The notes under the pieces are model-generated. The model saw only the letters and a list, made by a program, of their open reading frames with translations. It did not search any database and was not told the origin of the DNA. The position numbers and the translations under genes were made by a program. A DNA stretch of 40,173 nucleotides from assembly GCA_012031145.1 (NCBI GenBank), contig JAAUUH010000016.1, positions 1 through 40,173 on the forward strand, read 5' to 3'. Source of the DNA: Oscillatoriales cyanobacterium SM2_2_1 (GTDB lineage: Bacteria; Cyanobacteriota; Cyanobacteriia; Pseudanabaenales; Pseudanabaenaceae). Below, one piece after another: positions 10,093 to 32,428 of this stretch (its first letter is position 1; the number at the start of each line of letters is the position of its first letter).

Positions 10093-12415
10093 TTACTCCA
10101 TGCCGTTAGCATAGAGGGGGAGCCCTTCTACCAAAATAGTGCCATCCAAGATTAAATAGGGTTGCCCACTAGGAGCCATGCCGCTACCGCAAATATAGGA
10201 TGGGGCCGTGATTTCGGTGCCGAGGGGGGAGATGACGGTTTCCTGCTCGCCGATCACTCGGTCTACCGCGATCGCCAGCCGTTGGGTATGGGCGGACAAC
10301 ACAATCAATAACTGGCGCTGCTCTAGGGCAGAGCTGGGGTCGGTCGCTGGGGAACCCTTCGCCAAAGGCGAATGGTAGACCAACAGTTCACTCAGGGCCC
10401 GGATAGGAATGGCTTCGTGATCCCAAAAACAGACCCGCTGGGTGAGGGGCGGTTGCAGCACTCGCTCCACGGTATCGGAAATTAGTCCGTAGGTGCGTCC
10501 CTGACATTCCACCAACAGAACGCGGGCAGTGCTAAGGGTGATGGGCAAAATCAGGGAAAAGGTGGTGCCTTGGCTGGGGGGTAGAAGCAACGGCTGTCTC
10601 GCCATTAATACTCTGCATCTGCGATCGCACCACATCTAGCCCGATGCCCCGCCCAGAGAGTTCACTGACTTGGGGGGCCGTAGAAAAGCCCGGCTCAAAC
10701 AACAACTCCAACAATTCGGCGGCGCTGAGGTTGTAGGCGGCGAGCGGTGCAAACAGGTTACGTTCAATCGCCCTTTGCCGAATTTTTTGGGGGTCAATGC
10801 CCGCCCCATCATCCCGGACTTCGATGACGGTGCGTCCACCATGGCGATAGGCATTCAACTCAATAGTGCCCGCAGGGGGCTTGCCTAGGGCCCGGCGCTG
10901 GGGCAAAGGTTCGATGCCATGGTCAAAGGCATTACGCACCAAGTGCAGCAGGGGGTCATAGAGTTTGGCGGCGATCGCCCGATCCACCAATAGGTCACCG
11001 CCGGTAATCTTGAGACCAACCTGCTTGTTGAACTTCACCGAAAGCTGCTCCACCGTAGTCCAAAAGCGATTAAAAATATCGTCTAGGGGCTGCATTCGTG
11101 CCGACATAAGGTTGTCGTGCATATGAATCAGCATCTGTTGCCGCTGCTCATGGAGATGTTGGGTGCGGTGGGCGGTGGTGGCCAGGGCATCAACACTGCG
11201 CTCAAGATCACCTAGGGCTGCCTGGGCCTTAGACAAGAGGGTAGTGAACGCCGGACGTTCTTGCCAGTCCTGAAGTTGCTGCACCACATGGCGTAATGAT
11301 TCCTGCTGGTCTTGCAGCGTGTGCAGTTGCCCCAAAAGTTGCTTGACTTCCCGGAGATCTTTTTGCTGCTGCACCAACACATCCCCCACGGTTTGATGCA
11401 AACGATCTAGAATTTCTACCTCGAGGCGCACCATGGGCGGTGCGCTGGGTTTCGGTGTGGCTGATGACAGCACAGCCAAGCTGACGGAAGGCTCAGGCTG
11501 CACGGGATCGGGAGACATAAACTCAGCCAAAGAAAGCGGCTCATCTTCCACTGGGGCAGGATTGACTAAGGACAACGCCCGATCAATGGCAGCTTCAAGG
11601 GTTTCGGTGCCCACGGACGGTAAAAAACTTTGCCATGCCACCGACAGTGTGCCACCCTGGGCACGATCGCCCCCTAGGATCTGCTGTTGTCCGGACTTGA
11701 GATCGCTCAGAGCTAGGGCCGCAATGTCACGAATACGCTGGGGGTTTTGCTCTAGGGCTTTGAGGGCGGTACCGGCGATCGCCGAGAATCCCAGCAAATT
11801 CAGGGAAATCCCTAGACCCTCAAACACCTCCAGGTGAGATTGCAGGGCAGCTAAAAACTCTGCCCCCAGAACCATCTGGGTATCGGCGCGGGTGATTAAG
11901 TCTGCCAACTCATCGAGCCGCAGGCGCACACTTTCAGCAAAGACAGAATGGACATAATCCAGCCCCAACTCCGTAGAAGTAGGTACTGAGGTGCTGTCAA
12001 GGTTGCTACCCAGCTTCACCTGCAATCGCCTTAGCAGTTCAGTTGCCCGGTTAAGCAGTTCGGGATCATCTCCCTGCCCCGGCTGATTAAACTCCTTATT
12101 TAGGGATTCCTGGAGATAGTCGTAGCCCATCAGCAGCAATTGCATGAGCTCAGCATCAAGGGGAATGGTGGGGTCATACAGATTTTTGAAAACATCCTCC
12201 AGCAAGTGGGCAATCTCTTGGATCGTGTCTAGACCAATGCTAGCCGCCGAGCCTTTGAGGGTATGGGTGGCGCGCATCAGCTCGTGAACCGTCACCCGCC
12301 GATCCCCCTCCTGGGACAGCCGCATCAAGTCCATCTCAATCTTGCTGAGCAACTCCCGGGCTTCCTCGCAAAAGTAGCCATAAATCTGGGCACGCAGTTC
12401 GGGATCAGTAATCAT
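10093..12415 (-). pseudogene. cheA: CheA-type chemotaxis histidine kinase, frameshifted
   Basis: Two overlapping frames make one CheA. The first (12415 to about 10580) has an Hpt domain with phospho-acceptor His in RATHTLKGSAAS (about residue 51), a dimerisation/coiled region (about 335-425), and the HATPase boxes HLVRNAFDHGIE, DDGAGID and GRGIGLDVV. The second frame (ending at 10093) continues with QGTTFSLILPITLSTARVLLVE and a CheW-like receptor-coupling domain ending LPLYANGME. They join perfectly if a C6 run (G6 at 10576-10581 on the plus strand) is read as C5: AVAS-TPSQGTTF. Without that, the kinase loses its last ATP-binding box and CheW domain. No C-terminal receiver domain is present, unlike many cyanobacterial hybrid CheAs. 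The start overlaps the MCP stop by 4 bases. The indel is probably a sequence error. Confidence 0.88.
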
Positions 12416-13971
12416 GGAGCCTTCCTTTCACGGTCGGGAGCTTGGAGAGCAGGGGGGGAGTCATCCCGAAGTTGGGCCACACTTTCCACGATCTGGGACA
12501 TGCCATGCTTGGCGATCGCCAGGGAGGCAGCAGCGGTCTGCAACAGTTCCGTCAGGTGCTGGTTTAGTTCCTCTAGGGCAGCCCCAGACTGCTTGGACAG
12601 TAACCGCACCTCATCGGTAACCACCGTAAAGCTACGCCCCAGCTCGCCGATCCGGGTCGATTCGAGGGCAGCATTGAGGGCCAATAGATTAGTTTGGGCT
12701 GCAAACCCATCCAGCAGTTGGGTCAGACGGGTCATTTTCTTGCTCAAACCATGGGCTTTTTGCAGGTGGAGGGAGACCTCACCAAAGTCCTGCCGAGCTT
12801 GGAGCAGTCGTCCTAGGGCTTGGGTGGTATGGGTGCGATCACTGCCTCTATGCATCCTAGGTCGCTGCTGCATTTGGGCCATGAGTCCACACTGGGCCGC
12901 CACCTGCTGCATCAGGCTCAGATCTAAAGGCTGCCACCGCCGCGGTAGGGAGTGAGCACTCCAGAGCACACCGCGCCCCCCGTCAAAGGTGAAGGGAAAG
13001 CTGGCGCTGGCAGTGATCTCGGCGGCCAGAAATAACTGGCGTTCTCGATCAGTCCAGCTGCAATCGGGCGATCGCAAATCCTCAAAAACCAGGGGTTGCT
13101 CCAGCATCCGAACCGAGGGAGGTGGCATCGGCACATCGGAACCATTTGGGGCGATCGCCTCATACCTTGGCTCCCCTGGGGGCCAGTCCAACCAAATCGC
13201 CACCCGCCCAAGACGTAAAAACTGCTGGATAGCGTGGGCCATGGATCCATAGGACACCGATTCCCCGGCACCCTGGGATAGGGACACGATCTGTTGGGTG
13301 AGGAGTTCCTCCTGCAGCCGCACCCGCTCTATCTGACGGCGCAATTCTAGGGGCAATAAAAACAAACTCACCTCCCGGGACAGGCGCTGCAAAAAGTCAA
13401 ATTCCGTCTCCCGCCATGCCCGCGCCCGATCGCCCTGCTGCACAATTAACAACCCCCAGGGTAGGGAGGGCTGGACAAAAATCGGTACCACCGCTTGGGA
13501 CAGCACCTGCAAATGATCCATCACCTGCTGCTGATAGTCTGTCAGCAACAGTTCCCGCCGATCATCCATGGCCATGACTGTCTCCACCTGCCAGCCCAAG
13601 GTGGAAGCCAAACCCCACGCCGCTAGGGGCATCATCATCCCTTGGGTGGGCGCAAAGCCAGGCTGCACTGACTCCATCTGCACGCGCCCCCGTCCGTCCC
13701 CCAGAAGTTGATAGACCACCACCCGACTGGCCCCCAGATGGGCTAGGACTCCCTCTGTCACCTGACGCAGGAGATGTTCTGGGCGCGTCGCTTGGGTCAA
13801 TTCGGACACTATCCGCCGCACCGCATCTTGGGAAGAACGCACTTCCTCCGTCCTCTGGGTAATGAAGTCCGTAATGGTTTGCATAGCCCCTGAAGGAATG
13901 CCCGCTGCCAGTTCCCTCAACTGGGCGATCGCTGCCAAAACCGTCGGCAAATCAGGCGTCGGTTGGGTCAT
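12412..13971 (-). CDS. Soluble GAF-domain methyl-accepting chemotaxis protein
   Basis: I use the ATG at 13971 (MTQPTPDLPTVLAAI), 4 bases after the cheW stop and preceded by GGAG; the longer reading lies inside cheW. The 519-aa product has GAF-like sensor regions at about 60-210 (PEHLLRQVTEGVLAHLGASR, then VVVYQ) and 235-385 (YGSMAHAIQQFLRLGRVAIW). It ends with a signalling region containing FAAQTNLLALNAALESTR and GRSFTVVTDEVRLLSKQS, the CheA/CheW-contacting hairpin tip of MCPs. No membrane segment or HAMP domain is seen, so this is a cytosolic receptor. No GAF cysteine of the phytochrome type is evident, so light sensing is not supported. It sits between cheW and cheA with overlapping ends, defining a minimal signalling operon, most likely controlling type IV pilus motility as in other cyanobacteria (inference). 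Confidence 0.88.
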   Translation of the reverse strand: MTQPTPDLPTVLAAIAQLRELAAGIPSGAMQTITDFITQRTEEVRSSQDAVRRIVSELTQATRPEHLLRQVTEGVLAHLGASRVVVYQLLGDGRGRVQMESVQPGFAPTQGMMMPLAAWGLASTLGWQVETVMAMDDRRELLLTDYQQQVMDHLQVLSQAVVPIFVQPSLPWGLLIVQQGDRARAWRETEFDFLQRLSREVSLFLLPLELRRQIERVRLQEELLTQQIVSLSQGAGESVSYGSMAHAIQQFLRLGRVAIWLDWPPGEPRYEAIAPNGSDVPMPPPSVRMLEQPLVFEDLRSPDCSWTDRERQLFLAAEITASASFPFTFDGGRGVLWSAHSLPRRWQPLDLSLMQQVAAQCGLMAQMQQRPRMHRGSDRTHTTQALGRLLQARQDFGEVSLHLQKAHGLSKKMTRLTQLLDGFAAQTNLLALNAALESTRIGELGRSFTVVTDEVRLLSKQSGAALEELNQHLTELLQTAAASLAIAKHGMSQIVESVAQLRDDSPPALQAPDRERKAP

Positions 13972-13975
13972 AGCC

Positions 13976-14467
13976 TTACTCCAGTACCACAGCAGTGGGG
14001 GTAAGAAACATTTCTGAGCGCACAATTGCTTCGGCATTAAGGAACAAATGCACCTCGTGGTGGGCTCCCAACCAAAAGCCATTGAGAAACGGACTCAGCC
14101 GCCCCGAAAAAAGCGTCGTTGGGCTCTTGAGGTTCTGATAATCCGCCGCCACCATATCCCCAACGGACTGAACCCCCAGGCCCAGCCGCTGCCCACTCAC
14201 TTGGAGCACCAAAAAGATCGCCTCCTCGCCCAATTCCAGGCACTCAAGCCCCAACATCGCGCCCAAATCCACCAACCACAGCGGTTCCCCCGACCACTGA
14301 TAGGTGCCCAGGACATAGGCTGGCACATGGGGGACGGGCAAGATTGAGGCTACGGGCACCGACAGAATTTCCATCACATATACCACGGGCAGCAACGCAT
14401 GTTGACCGCGCGCCACCTGAAACTGTAGTACCCCTTCGCTGTTTGCTGTACCCTGTGGAACTGCCAT
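13976..14467 (-). CDS. cheW: CheW-like coupling protein
   Basis: The product is 163 aa from the ATG at 14467 (MAVPQGTANSEG), which is preferred over an upstream TTG at 14521. It has the CheW/PilI pattern: VLQFQVARGQHALLPVVYVMEIL, then VPHVPAYVLGTYQWSGEPLWLVDLGAMLG, then IFLVLQVSGQRLGLGVQSVGDMV. Such proteins bridge MCP receptors to CheA. It is the first gene of a cheW-MCP-cheA operon, with only 4 bases to the MCP. No CheY/PatA-type response regulator is encoded next to the operon in this window. Confidence 0.85.
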   Translation of the reverse strand: MAVPQGTANSEGVLQFQVARGQHALLPVVYVMEILSVPVASILPVPHVPAYVLGTYQWSGEPLWLVDLGAMLGLECLELGEEAIFLVLQVSGQRLGLGVQSVGDMVAADYQNLKSPTTLFSGRLSPFLNGFWLGAHHEVHLFLNAEAIVRSEMFLTPTAVVLE

Positions 14468-14830: not shown

Positions 14831-14916
14831 GCCTAACGGCTCGATTCAGCGGCGGCAGACTATATTTGAGCGAAGAGTGGAAACCTTGACCGTCCGCTGC
14901 GACTGAATTGTTAGAC
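14831..14916 (-). other. attC-like recombination site 1 (downstream of DUF4160/DUF2442 cassette)
   Basis: This is an 86-bp imperfect palindrome with the hallmarks of an integron attC site. On the minus strand it begins GTCTAAC (matching RYYYAAC) and ends GTTAGGC (matching GTTRRRY). The inner arms CAGCGG-A-CGG and CCG-CCGCTG pair with one unpaired A, as the extrahelical base does in attC hairpins. Outer arms ATTCAG/CTGAAT add a second possible pairing. The stop codon of the DUF2442 gene (14911-14913) lies inside the first core, the usual cassette arrangement. The arms and centre closely resemble site 2. Confidence 0.8.
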
Positions 14917-15207
14917 CACGGCTGCTCTTGCATTCAGCCATCGCTGAAGTGATTTTTGACTTTCTCCAGATGATTGCCCAAGAATCAAGTTTTTGATACT
15001 GATGTCTTCATCAAGTTGAGTCCAGTGGATGCCTTCGCCGCTAGCAATGAAACGCCAATCATTACGTTCTTCCAACGAAGCATTCATCAAACGGGGATAC
15101 CATGCGAGTGGACCAGATATAGTACGCCCATCAGACAGGTCAGCAGACAAAGTGTCATCCGTAACAGTTATTTCCTGAATCTTAGGTAACTCAAGTCGTT
15201 CAATCAT
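14911..15207 (-). CDS. DUF2442 family protein (putative antitoxin-like partner of DUF4160)
   Basis: The ATG at 15207 gives 98 aa, MIERLELPKIQEITVTDDTL. The family pattern is clear: a beta-hairpin with LSADLSDGRTISGPLAWYPRL, the helix ASLEERNDWRF, and IASGEGIHWTQLDEDISI(K)NLILG, then a basic/helical tail. DUF2442 proteins are usually encoded directly after a DUF4160 gene and the pair is often treated as a putative toxin-antitoxin-like module; this is not experimentally established as far as I know. The start overlaps the DUF4160 stop (ATGATTGA). The stop codon lies within attC-like site 1, so this is the 3' gene of a mobile cassette. Confidence 0.85.
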   Translation of the reverse strand: MIERLELPKIQEITVTDDTLSADLSDGRTISGPLAWYPRLMNASLEERNDWRFIASGEGIHWTQLDEDISIKNLILGQSSGESQKSLQRWLNARAAVV

Positions 15208-15424
15208 TAAAGAAGTCATGCCAACCTGCGAATAGTTGCTCTTGGTGTTCTTCAACAAGTTCCTGAGTACGATTAATTTCAGTGCGACTAAACCCCCTGT
15301 TGCTTTGGATACGGATTGGGGCAAGCCAAAACTTGGCTTCATCCTTGTCGCGTTCAACATGCACATGAGGTGACTCATCCCGATCGCCTGCGTAGCAGAA
15401 GAATCAATATGGGCTGATAGTCAA
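15200..15424 (-). pseudogene. DUF4160 family gene interrupted by an in-frame TGA
   Basis: The minus-strand frame ending at 15200 reads FFCYAGDRDESPHVHVERD, then KDEAKFWLAPIRIQSNRGFS, then RTEINRTQELVEEHQEQLF. This is a textbook DUF4160 sequence including the conserved PHxHVERxxxxAKFW core. Its normal N-terminus (TISPYRFFFYAGDRDE-like) is also present from about 15424 (TTG ACT ATC AGC CCA TAT), but the next codon is TGA (15406-15404) where the family usually has Arg. A single C-to-T change of CGA explains it. No ATG follows the stop, so only a GTG-initiated fragment could be made. The stop codon at the gene end overlaps the DUF2442 start. This could be decay of a cassette gene or a sequence error. 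Confidence 0.75.
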
Positions 15425-16514: not shown

Positions 16515-17351
16515 TTAGGGGATGCTATTTTTATTTTTCCTCACTTGATACTCCTTTGTTTCAAATAGAAAATCACAGAGAGTCTTGGCAGAATTTACGG
16601 CTAGTTTTGCATGATGTTCTAGTGGTTTATATGAAATAATATGAGAATCACTCATCGTATTACGTAAAGTAGCCAAGTCAGAAACTATACTTGTTAATCC
16701 AGATAGGATCTGCCTCAGACATTCTGCAAGGCTCTCTTGTTCTGGTGAGAGATTTAAGTGCTTTTGAACCCTCTTATACAGTTTCGGTAGGTTGCCATCA
16801 TATTCAGGTGGATTAGGATCGTATTCTTTCTCAATCGCTGACAAAACTGCATCGACAAGAGAGCGCGCATTGGTAATTGCACCATCAAAATTTCCTTCGC
16901 CAAGCTTCTTGTCGCACTTCTTTATTTGTTCGTCAATAAAGATATGTGTGAGTTCAACTGAATTTTTATAAGGATGCGATAACTCTATTGAAGATCTGCT
17001 TAATTTGTAAACATCCCACTTCTTTCCTGACGATCGCAGTTCGTAATTATCAAACTCAAGAAACTGATTTAAATGTTCAACGGCAATATTAATGTTGAGT
17101 TCTTTGGCAAGAAAGTGGCGAGGATCGAGAGCCGCAACCAGAATATCTTTCATGGTTGGTGTGTCATTAAATTCGCGCAATTTCTTTTCTGCATAATCCC
17201 AACGAGAAGGAAAACCGCTCCCATAAGTGTCCTATGAACCAAATTGGTTGAAGAACGAAACTAATTGCGGACCCGTTCGATATGGCGATCGCCCTCCATC
17301 ACCAGTGATAATCGAGCCAAGAGCCGATATTGTTTGTTCTGATAGTTTCAC
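16515..17351 (-). pseudogene. Abortive-infection (Abi_C) family gene with internal TAG
   Basis: The frame from GTG 17351 reads KLSEQTISALGSIITGDGGR, then SPYRTGPQLVSFFNQFGS, a TAG (17234-17232), then DTYGSGFPSRWDYAEKKL, then an ATG at 17153 and onward to 16515. Sequence quality on both sides of the TAG is the same protein. The C-terminal half (FDGAITNARSLVDAVLSAIE, LPKLYKRVQKHLNLSPEQES, LRQILSGLTSIVSDLATLRN, then HHAKLAVNSAKTL) matches the Abi_C domain of phage-exclusion proteins. The gene is visibly AT-richer than its neighbours, a sign of transfer. If only the downstream ATG is used, a 212-aa product lacking the N-terminal domain results. It lies 70 bases upstream of the 86-aa/retropepsin cassette on the same strand. 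Confidence 0.7.
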
Positions 17352-20220: not shown

Positions 20221-22076
20221 ATGAAGGTCGTTGCTGGTTTCGTCAGGTCAGGACTCACGCTTGGCACTGGGTTAAGGTTCCTGATCGTCTCCCTCGCCTC
20301 CTCTGCCACAGCCCTTGGAATTCTATACGCCAACTACTACAACTATTGGGAAGTCACCATCCACCGCACCCAAACCATAGATTTCAATATTCTGGCAAAC
20401 CTTCTCCCTACCAAAATATCCCTACTACTTCCCCAAGCCTAAACCTCTAAAACCAGTGCCGCCCTACTCCAACAGTCCCTAGACAGCAACTATGGACTCT
20501 TCGGCATCATTGTCACCGATTGCAAAACCGCCGCGACTTCCTGCTCATCACAAAAAATCCTTTTTGCCTCCCAAGCGAAAATTAGCAACACGGGAGCTCT
20601 GATTCCTCAAAATGAATATGCCAAAAATTGGACCAAAAGAATAGATACCAAGGAGTCCCTCAACCGAGAATTGGCAGCTTCACCCCATGTTTTACTCTAC
20701 AACCCTCTCCCACTCCAACAGGAATGGAGCTTTCTCTCTCCCCGCAACGACACCCAAGTGCCCCAGCAAAAAAATCAGGGCACGATTATTGGCAGAATCT
20801 ACTTCCTCAGAGCAGAACCTCCTGCTTTCAAAGACGAATTGGAACGATGGTCAAGGGATATTCCCAATAGCCTCGCCAACTTAGGGGGCTCTAAATCCAC
20901 GATCAGCAGCAGAACACTGGTGTACAACTCCGTAGCGTTCTCTGCCCTTCTGACCGGCTTAATCACCTTTCTAATTCTAGAGTTCGCCTACTACCTAATG
21001 CGACATTCCCAGGAGAAGGAATCCAGAGCAGTCGCAGAAAAACAGATTGCCGAGCAAAAACTTCACGCTACCCAAAGCCGCCTCCGCCAAGCGCAAATAC
21101 AGGCCGAACATGCTGCTGAAAAAAGTGGGAATGCAATCCTTAAGCAACAGGAGTCGGAACAAAAAGCTCGTGAAGCCGCCATTCAGTATGAGCAGGCCCT
21201 GCGTGAAAAGGAGCAAGCTGAAGCCGCCGCGGAAGACATCAGTCAGCAATTACTCCAACAGAGAGAGTTCACTAACCAAGCACTTCGCCTCGCAATGGAA
21301 AAAAGTGAACAGGCTTGGTACGAAAAGCGGCATCTGAGGAGCTCGCCCAACTGGCAGCGATTGAAAGCGAGGAAGCCCAACGTCAAAAAGCCAAAGCTGA
21401 GGAACTCCTGAAAATCGCCCTCCACGAGAGTGAGCAAGCGCTGAGTGACAAGGCAAAAGCTGAGGAACAGGCTCGGTTGGCAACGGCAGAGCGCGAATAC
21501 ACCAGGCAGAAACAACAGGATTTATATGAAACCATTGAGGATGAGATTGAGAGAGAAACCAGAAAACTCAAGGAAGAAAATGAAACTCTGCAAGCCGAAA
21601 ATCAACGCCTCCAACAAGAACGCTATCGACTCTTCACCAAAGCAGAATCTATGATGCCCACAGAGGCACTGAAGCACGGACAAAATGCTATCTACTTTGA
21701 AATGACCGAAAATGATTTTTATCCCTCCGAAAGGAAGGATTTGATTCTTGAGATTATCAAAAGAAGCAGTGCTTCTGTCCATCCAGGCAGTCGTAGTGCT
21801 CACGTTCTTCAGGACTTGCTAAAGCGCAATCAATCTTCGGGACGCAGAGAATCCCTAAAGCGGGAAATTGACAATTTGTTCAAGGGATATAGGAAAGTGG
21901 AGAGTCCGCTGCGCAGCGAACTCCAACATCTAGGATTTGAGTTTATTTCCGACAACCATCACCACAAGATCCGCTTTTGCGATGACCCTCGATATACTGT
22001 TTCGTTTGCCAAAACTCCTAGTGACTGGCGCGCAGGCAAGAATATCGCCGATGATATTTGCCACAGAATACTATAG
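20221..22076 (+). pseudogene. Unrecognised two-TM, coiled-coil protein, broken by TAA and a frameshift
   Basis: A single gene of about 618 codons is spread over three open segments. From the ATG at 20221 it has a membrane helix (LRFLIVSLASSATALGILYA, about 18-37). An in-frame TAA (20440-20442, one change from CAA) interrupts an otherwise continuous extracytoplasmic region. A second membrane helix (SVAFSALLTGLITFLILEFA, about 237-256) follows, then a long charged coiled coil. At 21323-21326 one A is missing (GAAAAG for GAAAAAG), after which the coil continues (ASEELAQLAAIESEEAQRQK). The C-terminal domain of about 85 residues contains FEFISDNHHHKIRF and TVSFAKTPSDWRAGKN, reminiscent of small HicA/dsRBD-like folds. 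I do not recognise the family. It follows the sbcC-like gene by 78 bases. Confidence 0.6.
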
Positions 22077-29025: not shown

Positions 29026-30983
29026 TTAATGGGCGGGTGGGAAGCATTGCGAGACTGGCTTGTCGCTCTCGCTAACTTCGGGGCTAAATCCTAGAACCCG
29101 GTAAACGGCGGTTTCCAGTTGTTTGCCCTTCAGGCGAATCTGATCAACAAATTCGATTTTGAAGTTGGCGGTGAGGTGTTGGTAGGTGGCGTCACTGATC
29201 AGAATATGGTACTCACCACCATCGATTTGTTTGTTGAGGCTTTCAAGGCGGGAAGCAATATTGACGGTGTCGCCAAGCACAGAGTATTCCAAGCGTTCAT
29301 CACTGCCCAAACTGCCGGCGATCGCCCAGCCTGAATTAATGCCAATTCCTGTGATCACGGGGGGGAGACCACGGGCAATGTAGGTTTCGTTGAGCTGTTG
29401 CAGTTTTTGGGCTATGGTCACAGCCGCGCGGACGGCATTACAGGCATCTCGCTGCTGCTCTGCGGGCGTGCTGTGGGGGATAGCACGCCAAAAACCGCCA
29501 TCACCGCATCACCAATATATTTGTCAACCATTCCCCCATGGCGCAGAATTTCATCGGCAATCAGACTGAGGTAGTGATTAAGCCAGTTCATTGTTTCATT
29601 GGGGGCTTGGGCTTCGGCGGCAGTGCTGAAGTTGCGCATATCCGTAAACAGCACCGTTACATAAACATCCTGTCCTTGAATCCGCCCATCTTCGAGGAAT
29701 TTCTGGCGACTACTCCAGATGATACTGACCAGTTCCTTGGACACATGGCGGGAAAATAAACCCATGAGAATTTTGCGCTCTGCCTGTTCTAAGGACAGCA
29801 GATAGGCCACAGTCATGACGTTGGCAACCACTAGACCCACAAGGGGGGAGATCAGGGGCAACCACAGTCCACTAAGGAACTGGTTATAGACAAAAAGACA
29901 CAGCACCGCCGCGAGGAGCAGAAGGGCAGCAAGATTCATGGCGGGTTGGCGCAAACGAAAGGCGGTCATGCCGCCCAAAGTACTCCAGCATAAAATCCAG
30001 AGCCATTCGGCCCAGTTGGCCACGACGGTGATGAAGGGTTGGTCTTCGAGAGCAGCATGGATCAGTTGGCTGGCTATGTGGCCGTGGATTTCTACTCCAT
30101 AGGTGACTTCAGCTCCCGTAGATAGGGGCGTAGGGTAGTTGTCTTTGACACTAACGGCAGTTGAGCCAATTAAAACGAGGCGATCGCGGAAGACCTGGGA
30201 ATCAACTTTTCCCTCCAATAGATCGGCGGCGGAAACAACGGGAAAAAAGCCGGCACGTCCCCGATAGTTGATCATGATCTGATAACCGCTGGCATCCTCA
30301 TCTTGGTAGCCACCGAAGGTGGGCGTTAACCGGGGAATTATCTGTCTGCCAGCCCGGAGGGTCACGGTTTCGGGATCAAAGACCAGTCCCTCTTGACCGC
30401 GCGATCGCAGGAACTGATCGGCGAGAGCATAGGCTAGGGAGGCCCCATCCCCAACTAGGTTGGCCCGCCGCACCACGCTGCCTTCATCGGTGACGATATT
30501 GGCAAAACCGAAGGCGCTAATTTGGCTGAGATCCGCAGGTGGGAGGACACTGCGCTCTCCAGGCTGAACTGCCACAAAGGAAACATTAACCACATTCTGG
30601 GCCTTGGCGATCGCCGACACTAGAATCTGCCGCCCTTTGGGATCTTCGGGGGGTTGGATCAAATCAAGGTATTTATCAATCCCAATGGCCGCTGGTTTAC
30701 CCTGAGAAATTTGAGTCACCATCTGCCCAAACATGCGATCGCTCCACGGCCACCGCTTCTGACGTTGGATGTCATCTTCACCGATGGCCACAATAACCAC
30801 GTAGGGATCGGGGCGAAGGTTGCCCCGTTGGCGCAGCATGGCATCATAGGTTCGCAGTTCAAATTGGACAAAGGCACGGGTGCTGCGTAACACGATTACA
30901 CCCCCGTAAACCAGACCAATAATACTGATCGCAATGAGGGGTTGGTGGTGCTGACGGATCAGCCTGATCAGGCGGTGAAGCAT
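29026..30983 (-). pseudogene. CHASE2-domain adenylate cyclase, frameshifted
   Basis: The first frame (from 30983) has an N-terminal membrane helix, an extracytoplasmic CHASE2 domain (about 35-320, with YDAMLRQRGNLRPDPYVVIV and RLVLIGSTAVSVKDNYPTP), three membrane segments (about 325-400) and a class III cyclase domain with VTVLFTDMRNFS and VDKYIGDAVMAVFG. The frame then breaks at a G5 run (29475-29479); read as G6 it continues PHSTPAEQQRDACNAVRAAV into the second frame, TIAQKLQQLN...GINSGWAIAGSLG, RLEYSVLGDTVNIASRLESL. Both metal aspartates, the adenine-selecting Lys (VDKYIGD) and Asp (LGDTVN), and the transition-state Asn/Arg are present, indicating adenylate cyclase. It is divergent from hisB. 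The indel is probably a sequence error. Confidence 0.88.
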
Positions 30984-31036: not shown

Positions 31037-31633
31037 ATGTCCCTGCCCCGAATTGCCCATGTGGAGCGCCAAACTGGAGAAACCCAAGTGGCAGTTACCC
31101 TTAACCTCGACGGTACGGGTAAGGCAGAGGTGCATACGGGGATTCCGTTTCTTGATCATATGCTGCACCAATGGTGTGCCCATGGCTTAATTGACTTAGC
31201 CGTGACCGCCACCGGCGACCTCCACATTGATGACCACCACACTAATGAAGATGTGGGCATTACCCTGGGGCAGGCCGTGGCCCAGGCAGTGGGTGATCGC
31301 AAAGGTATTGTCCGGTTCGGGCATTTTTTAGCTCCCCTCGATGAGGCACTGGTGCAAGTAGCCCTCGATTTTTCTGGACGCCCCTATTTATCCTACGGAT
31401 TGGTGATCCCTACTGCCCGAGTTGGCACCTACGATACTCAACTGGTGCGGGAATTTTGGCAGGCAATAGTCAACCATGCCCAATTGACGCTGCACATCCA
31501 GCAATTATCCGGTCTCAACTCCCACCACATTATTGAGTCCAACTTCAAAGCCTTTGCCCGCGCCTTTCGGATGGCGATCGCCCTTGACCCCCGCCGCAGC
31601 CATGAGATTCCCAGTTCTAAGGGTGTCCTATGA
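31037..31633 (+). CDS. hisB: Imidazoleglycerol-phosphate dehydratase
   Basis: The protein is 198 aa and monofunctional, catalysing the sixth step of histidine synthesis (IGP to imidazole-acetol phosphate). The metal-binding His clusters are present: [25 protein letters not shown], and [20 protein letters not shown]. The N-terminus [20 protein letters not shown] and length match bacterial HisB. A GAGG motif precedes the ATG. It stands apart from other his genes, as usual in cyanobacteria. Its end overlaps the convergent phosphatase gene by 6 bases. Confidence 0.96.
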
Positions 31634-32428
31634 CCGCAGCTCTAGGCAAATTAAGGTCGTGTCGTCATTGGGTAACCGCTGGAGCGATCTCTCCCCATCT
31701 ACCCACTGGCAGAACTGTCGGCTGTTGCGAATCTGATTAAGTTGTTGCCATGGATTGTTCCCCAACTCCAACTGACTAAAAATCCAAGCGGCTAGGGCAT
31801 CGGTCACAAGGTAAAAGCGATCGCCCAAACGCCCCACGCCACAGAGTGAGCGAGCCGGCACGATCAGTGGGGGCTGTTGCCCTTGGGAGCTCAATAGGGG
31901 GGGACGAAACCCCAATAACTGACCATTGGTGATCGGAAAGCACGCCATTACCCGCTGTTGCCGCACAACAAATAGACAGGAATCCCCCACGGCGATCGCC
32001 CGCCACTGCCGATCCCGCAATAGTACTAGCCCCAACAATGTGGCAAAGGTTCCCTCCTGGGCTTTGCGGCGGGCATACCAGCGCAACTGCTGCGCATCTA
32101 GCCACTGCGCCCAGTGTTGCTGCAATGGGTACAGCCAGTCGGACGATAAATCCTGCGTTGGTCGGCGGACATAGGTCTCCACTAAAATTTGGGCCCACTG
32201 TCGGGCAAAGGAAGACTCTGTTGCCCCATCCGCGATCGCCACCACCCAGCCCCGCTCACCTGCCCACCAAGCATAGGCATCCTCACACTCATGAAGGGCA
32301 TTGCCCGCCTTATGCACCGAAAAACATTGTCGCAACCGAGGCATTCCCAACCGTGACCGCCCCCCCATGGTTTGATGGGGTTGCTTTGGCCGGTGAAGCC
32401 GGAGCGGAAAAGCAAGGGGAACCTTCAT
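31628..32428 (-). CDS. PP2C-like protein phosphatase
   Basis: The protein is up to 266 aa. It has [20 protein letters not shown] (first metal Asp region), [18 protein letters not shown] (DG metal-binding motif), [22 protein letters not shown] (GDS motif), and a C-terminal [13 protein letters not shown] with the DD metal residues. These are the motifs of bacterial PP2C/SpoIIE-related phosphatases, acting on Ser/Thr phosphate with Mn or Mg. The ATG at 32428 has AGGA at good spacing, but only 18 bases separate it from the divergent start at 32447. An internal start at 32344 ([10 protein letters not shown]) would leave more room for promoters. No kinase is adjacent. Confidence 0.85.

What the first reader, a model, noticed from the sequence alone, without database searches (positions are those of the whole stretch)
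20221..22076. Unrecognised membrane-anchored coiled-coil protein with a small C-terminal domain, next to an SbcC-like ATPase
Joining three segments gives two membrane helices around an extracytoplasmic domain, a long coiled coil, and a C-terminal module with FISDNHHHKIRF and TPSDWRAGKN. This layout (membrane sensor, signalling coil, possible nucleic-acid or toxin-fold end) fits a stress or defence effector. The 78-base spacing from an SMC/Rad50-type ATPase could mean a two-gene system. Without joining, it would be reported as three unrelated fragments.
Basis: partly seen in the sequence, partly recalled or inferred. Interest (0 to 1): 0.6.

Follow-up and report, generated by a model that had tools for sequence, protein, structure and literature searches.

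The report
Broken membrane-sensor gene with swappable effector
The three fragments are one decayed cyanobacterial gene for a membrane-anchored sensor joined by a long coil to a toxin-like RNA-binding end; intact relatives in other cyanobacteria carry the same sensor with different toxin or nuclease ends, which points to an undescribed family of one-gene stress or defence switches.

Summary
20221-22076 is one gene broken by an in-frame TAA (20440) and one frameshift (about 21310-21330). An unbroken relative in another cyanobacterial family (cut by its contig end) aligns across both breaks. The gene encodes TM1, an extracytoplasmic domain, TM2, a 210-residue coil and a C-terminal domain.

The C-terminal domain is predicted as three helices plus an alpha-beta-beta-beta-alpha unit. 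Its three best PDB matches are HicA toxins, though none is significant by E-value. The link to sbcC is not recurrent.

The main result goes beyond the finding. The TM-ectodomain-TM module has no Pfam model and occurs in 31 of 390 cyanobacterial genomes. In relatives it carries other C-terminal domains: HicA toxin, NERD nuclease, Card1-like nuclease, Gp49/RelE-type toxin, DUF2325 or a histidine-kinase ATPase. A tree needs 11 domain changes for 7 types. The window's own C-terminal domain also rides on single-TM and on soluble HEC-07-like proteins.

Best reading: an envelope sensor that releases a toxin or nuclease activity through a coiled coil; the window copy is probably a recent pseudogene. 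Architecture is shown; function is inferred. I found no description in the literature I could search.

The parts
20221..22076 (+). whole gene, broken by one in-frame stop and one frameshift; joined product about 617 residues
   Evidence: aligned throughout with L054 (G250); no second copy in the genome
20269..20325 (+). first transmembrane helix (joined residues 17-35)
   Evidence: hydropathy 1.68; start of the long helix H19-76 in the model of the homologue L054
20344..20931 (+). extracytoplasmic domain, PAS/Cache-like in topology; conserved QTxDFNxLxxxLPTKxS, LDSNYGLFGxxVTDC and GxIIGRxYxxR
   Evidence: alignment of 24 rows; model pLDDT 90; Foldseek matches to PAS/GAF folds weak
20440..20442 (+). 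in-frame TAA stop inside the ectodomain
   Evidence: homologues read through here
20932..20988 (+). second transmembrane helix (joined residues 238-256)
   Evidence: hydropathy 2.10
21016..21647 (+). coiled coil, about 210 residues, no proline
   Evidence: in the relative L054 the coil is built of near-identical repeats
21309..21331 (+). frameshift: reading passes from frame 1 to the frame of 22074
   Evidence: frame 3 closed at 21306, frame 1 loses homology before 21409
21687..22073 (+). C-terminal domain: three helices plus alpha-beta-beta-beta-alpha (HicA-like) unit, the latter 21903-22073
   Evidence: PADLOC 'HicA-like' E 0.005 here, 3e-7 in P0002
17713..20142 (+). sbcC/rad50-type ATPase gene upstream; not judged to be part of the system

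Best explanation
The gene is a recently inactivated member of a cyanobacterial family of one-piece membrane receptors. Two TM helices hold a small PAS/Cache-like extracytoplasmic domain; a long, probably dimeric coiled coil carries the signal inward to a C-terminal effector domain that has been exchanged many times. In the window the effector is a HicA-like dsRNA-binding fold, expected to bind or cut RNA (shutting down translation) when the sensor reports an envelope event such as phage attack, envelope damage or a ligand. Shown: architecture, domain swapping, patchy distribution, the two breaks, lack of sbcC linkage. Inferred: HicA-like biochemistry, coil-mediated activation, role in defence or stress arrest, present loss of function.
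For: Relative with the same layout and 51% identity over the ectodomain to coil part, aligning across both breaks. Module in 31 of 390 cyanobacterial genomes, 23 of 160 genera. Pfam C-terminal domains HicA_toxin E 6e-14, 5e-15, 9e-13; NERD in seven scanned proteins, best 8e-14; Gp49 3e-10; HATPase_c 1e-12; DUF2325 6e-8; Card1_endonuc 9e-5 (weak, below Pfam's cut-off). Tree: 11 changes for 7 types, shuffled mean 18; the window/L054 pair is sister to a kinase-headed protein (100/99), and one DUF2325 protein lies inside the NERD group. The C-terminal domain is predicted as alpha-beta-beta-beta-alpha with HicA toxins as the three best PDB matches (5yrz TM 0.63 by target length, 4c26, 6g26) and 6hpb at rank 7. 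The module also sits on cyanobacterial plasmids; in Synechococcus elongatus it carries a RelE-like end (PDB match Rv2866, E 0.002) between N-6 methylase and HEPN genes and HEPN, GIY-YIG and DEAD genes. Broken copies also in G322 and G166.
Against: No function tested. Foldseek E-values for the C-terminal domain are not significant (0.23 at best) and Pfam HicA_toxin does not hit it; profile comparison with the HicA ends is weak (probability 9%). Histidine-kinase and DUF2325 ends show that the sensor is not tied to toxins. Neighbours of nine module genes are not consistently defence genes (12 PADLOC families, each in one of 45 neighbours). Module not found in phage or viral collections.
Confidence: 0.55

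Rival explanations
1. Ordinary signalling family: the C-terminal domain is an RNA- or partner-binding output module of a stress-response receptor (as with the histidine-kinase members), not a toxin.
For: Six or more kinase-headed members, one with a response-regulator gene next door; the C-terminal domain lacks the HicA Pfam signature.
Against: Most other C-terminal domains are nuclease or toxin folds. In Proteobacteria, Klebsiella plasmids and Lachnospiraceae the same domain rides on HEC-07-like proteins, a candidate defence family.
Confidence: 0.3
2. The gene is intact in the cell and the two breaks are assembly or sequencing errors.
For: Draft genome of 185 contigs; conserved C-terminal residues are still present; only two lesions.
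Against: A substitution-type stop and a frameshift in one 1.9-kb gene, while sbcC, exoD and other genes nearby are open; related copies in G322 and G166 are broken or headless as well.
Confidence: 0.15
3. Two-gene system with the adjacent SbcC-like ATPase.
For: Same strand, 78-base gap.
Against: No sbcC in any fetched neighbourhood of the module or C-terminal domain; no module near 29 other sbcC/rad50-type loci. The sbcC gene is present in family genomes that lack the module.
Confidence: 0.03

Closest known systems
HicA toxin (Pfam PF07927; PDB 5yrz, 4c26, 6g26, 6hpb)
   Same: [quoted passage not shown] nearly invariant His at the start of the second strand, where HicA has its Gly-Ser-His motif; three family relatives carry a true HicA domain at the same place.
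   Different: No Pfam hit, different motif (xHxK...DxRYT...KTPSDxRAGxN), extra three-helix part in front, no HicB gene beside it, membrane-anchored.
Class 14 'SMC-HicA' fusions, some with NERD (Gerdes 2024, PMC10865869)
   Same: Coiled coil plus C-terminal HicA, NERD in the same set; the coil of our HicA-headed member scores as SMC_prok_B (E 8e-9).
   Different: No Walker A in any of the 29 proteins checked and two TM helices in most module members. The paper does not mention a membrane. Some Class 14 proteins may be this family, but the paper's table could not be read.
HEC-07 (PADLOC candidate defence protein)
   Same: Soluble relatives carry the same C-terminal domain behind an HEC-07-like N-terminal part (P0003, E 1e-8).
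   Different: No membrane part, different N-terminal domain; not found in cyanobacteria here.
sCache/PAS sensors of two-component kinases (e.g. WalK)
   Same: TM-ectodomain-TM-coil layout, TDxxG-type turn in part of the members, kinase-headed relatives.
   Different: No Pfam match, weak fold match (E 0.9 for WalK); output is often a toxin or nuclease.

Membership tests
HicA toxin (PF07927) | Pfam/HMM score above cut-off | tested here: not met
   no PF07927 hit; PADLOC HicA-like only at E 0.005
HicA toxin (PF07927) | alpha-beta-beta-beta-alpha dsRBD fold | tested here: met
   predicted model, pLDDT 84; nearest PDB entries are HicA
HicA toxin (PF07927) | catalytic His (Gly-Ser-His) | tested here: inconclusive
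   nearly invariant His at the start of strand 2, but motif differs and hhalign is off by one residue
HicA toxin (PF07927) | adjacent HicB antitoxin | tested here: not met
   window neighbours are sbcC and exoD
HicA toxin (PF07927) | RNase activity | not testable with these tools
   -
SMC-HicA class 14 | SMC ATPase (Walker A) | tested here: not met
   no GxxxxGK[ST]
SMC-HicA class 14 | accessions listed by Gerdes | not testable with these tools
   supplementary files not available
SbcC-linked two-gene system | recurrent adjacency | tested here: not met
Cache/PAS sensor | profile match | tested here: not met
   no Pfam hit over the N-terminal part
Cache/PAS sensor | fold | tested here: inconclusive
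   helix plus mixed sheet between two TM helices; PAS/GAF/LOV/WalK among top Foldseek hits, none significant
Window-type sensor family (defined here) | TM-ectodomain-TM with QTxDFNxLxxxLPTKxS and GxIIGRxYxxR | tested here: met

The most novel reading that the evidence does not exclude
A cyanobacterial class of single-gene membrane immune receptors: one conserved extracytoplasmic sensor with interchangeable toxin and nuclease effectors (HicA, HicA-like, NERD, Card1-like, Gp49, RelE-like) that senses phage or mobile-element attack at the envelope and triggers cell arrest or degradation of nucleic acid, spread partly by plasmids.
Probability: 0.35. Interest if true: 0.8.

Novelty: new variant of a known kind. 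Interest (0 to 1): 0.6.

Why it matters
Most known bacterial immune proteins sense invaders inside the cell. A conserved outside-facing sensor wired to at least five kinds of toxin or nuclease in one polypeptide would be a receptor-effector logic that is little described in bacteria. A plasmid-borne member in Synechococcus elongatus brings it near a laboratory species. It may also explain proteins filed as 'SMC-HicA fusions' or 'NERD domain-containing protein'.

Tried and rejected
sbcC partnership: rejected on neighbourhoods. Programmed recoding: not tested directly; set aside because homologues are uninterrupted at both places. A second copy in the genome: none. Phage or viral origin: no relatives in phage records or IMG/VR with the patterns used; a viral scan with the C-terminal alignment could not be run. 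PDB sequence search for both parts: only chance hits. Pfam DUF5694 hit on the C-terminal domain: below the curated cut-off, set aside. The genome-contig scan with the C-terminal domain used strict patterns and returned only 8 loci, so it is a lower bound. Consistent defence neighbourhood: not found. Searching a non-cyanobacterial phylum with the sensor profile was not possible, so 'cyanobacteria only' rests on plasmids, viruses and the Cyanobacteriota genomes searched.

Full report
Observation. The window is contig C32 of a 3.1-Mb draft genome (185 contigs, 90% complete); the relatives searched and its genes mark it as a cyanobacterium. In 20221-22076 frame 1 is open from 20221 except for a TAA at 20440, up to 21409; the frame that ends at 22074 is open from 21306. 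Tblastn with L054, a relative from another family (G250) without internal breaks but cut off by its contig end, covers residues 7-393 straight across the TAA (47% identity, E 2e-115) and residues 348-514 in the second frame (34%, E 5e-31). The three pieces are therefore one gene with two lesions. The genome has no second copy.

Anatomy. The joined product has TM helices at residues 17-35 and 238-256, a 210-residue coil with no proline and one glycine, and no Walker A. AlphaFold on 23 relatives gives the sensor at pLDDT 90: TM helix, long helix, mixed sheet, second TM helix. Foldseek gives only weak matches, among them GAF, LOV and WalK domains. This is consistent with a PAS/Cache-like sensor but does not establish it. 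The C-terminal domain (pLDDT 84) has three helices and then alpha-beta-beta-beta-alpha. The three nearest solved structures are HicA toxins (5yrz: probability 0.93, TM 0.63 by target length, rmsd 2.9 over 57 columns; 4c26; 6g26), with 6hpb at rank 7, but the best E-value is only 0.23. PADLOC's HicA-like profile hits at E 0.005 here and 3e-7 in the relative P0002. Pfam's HicA does not hit. I therefore call it HicA-like and do not file it as HicA.

Distribution of the C-terminal domain. It occurs in 17 of 390 cyanobacterial genomes, in Paraburkholderia, Massilia, Sphingomonas, another gammaproteobacterium and gut Clostridia, and on small mobilizable Klebsiella plasmids. In cyanobacteria it follows two TM helices (window, L054, L042) or a single N-terminal TM helix plus coil (L036-L048); in the other phyla read it follows a soluble HEC-07-like part.

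Distribution of the sensor. The TM-ectodomain-TM part has no Pfam model and occurs in 31 of 390 cyanobacterial genomes, 23 of 160 genera, and on plasmids of Nostoc, Calothrix, Aulosira, Cylindrospermopsis and Synechococcus elongatus. The C-terminal domains differ: HicA_toxin (L068, L072, L077), NERD (L056, L057, L058, L061, L063, L065, L067; also the near-identical L066 by inspection), Gp49 (L074), Card1_endonuc (L070, L076; weak), DUF2325 (L059, L062, L064) and HATPase_c kinases (L055, L079; L078, L149, L151 and L152 by inspection of the sequence). The S. elongatus copy ends in a RelE-like domain (PDB match Rv2866, E 0.002) and lies among N-6 methylase, Swt1-type HEPN, HEPN, GIY-YIG and DEAD genes. 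On a tree of the sensor part, seven end types need 11 changes (minimum 6, shuffled mean 18). The window and L054 are sister to a kinase-headed protein (100/99), and a DUF2325-headed one lies among NERD-headed ones (93/94). Exchange of the C-terminal domain is therefore recurrent. Other copies are broken too (G322, G166). Patchy distribution, decay and plasmid carriage fit a defence or conflict gene but do not prove it. The PADLOC scan of 45 neighbours gave only single hits.

sbcC. The short Rad50-type gene has good homologues in the family (41-77% identity), yet neither module nor C-terminal domain lies within 1.5 kb of 29 such or related loci, and no fetched module neighbourhood has sbcC. The 78-base spacing is a local coincidence.

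Mechanism. Sensor outside, coil through and below the membrane, effector inside: this orientation is inferred from the layout and from the kinase-headed relatives, whose ATPase must be cytoplasmic. A signal at the envelope would change the packing of the coil and free or dimerise the C-terminal domain. For the HicA-like domain I expect RNA binding or cleavage and arrest of translation, by analogy with HicA (established knowledge of that family). I rate the envelope-triggered toxin/nuclease reading at 0.55. The copy in the window is most likely a recent pseudogene.

Literature. The nearest published description is Gerdes 2024 (PMC10865869): 14 contexts of HicA, of which Class 14 is 'SMC' fused to HicA, sometimes with NERD. 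The coil of L068 scores as SMC_prok_B at E 8e-9 although the protein has two TM helices and no Walker A, so some Class 14 proteins may belong here; this is an inference. Searches for the sensor family gave nothing in the library available.

Noticed in passing
window 16515-17180 (-) and 14911-15378 (-): Abi_C (abortive infection C-terminus, E 6e-21) and DUF2442 genes upstream of sbcC; possible remains of a defence patch.
   Followed up: no
L006 6204-6623 and 11099-11947 (Citrobacter NZ_OQ821053): The HEC-07-like/coil/HicA-like gene of the small ColRNAI plasmid appears to be split by a Tn4401 element that carries KPC-3; intact copies exist on 5.9-kb Klebsiella plasmids.
   Followed up: partly
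L155 5914-7362: Synechococcus elongatus IITB3 plasmid gene with the same sensor and a RelE-like end, in a cluster of methylase, HEPN, GIY-YIG and helicase genes.
   Followed up: partly
L038 9144-9446 and 9943-10488: Two neighbouring genes with the C-terminal domain in G125, the first apparently truncated.
   Followed up: no
window 10532-14082 (-): Chemotaxis-type pair: a protein with Hpt and HATPase, and one with GAF and MCP signalling domains.
   Followed up: no
window 29418-30983 (-) and 31628-32428 (-): CHASE2-domain protein followed by a PP2C phosphatase, next to the ATP synthase operon.
   Followed up: no
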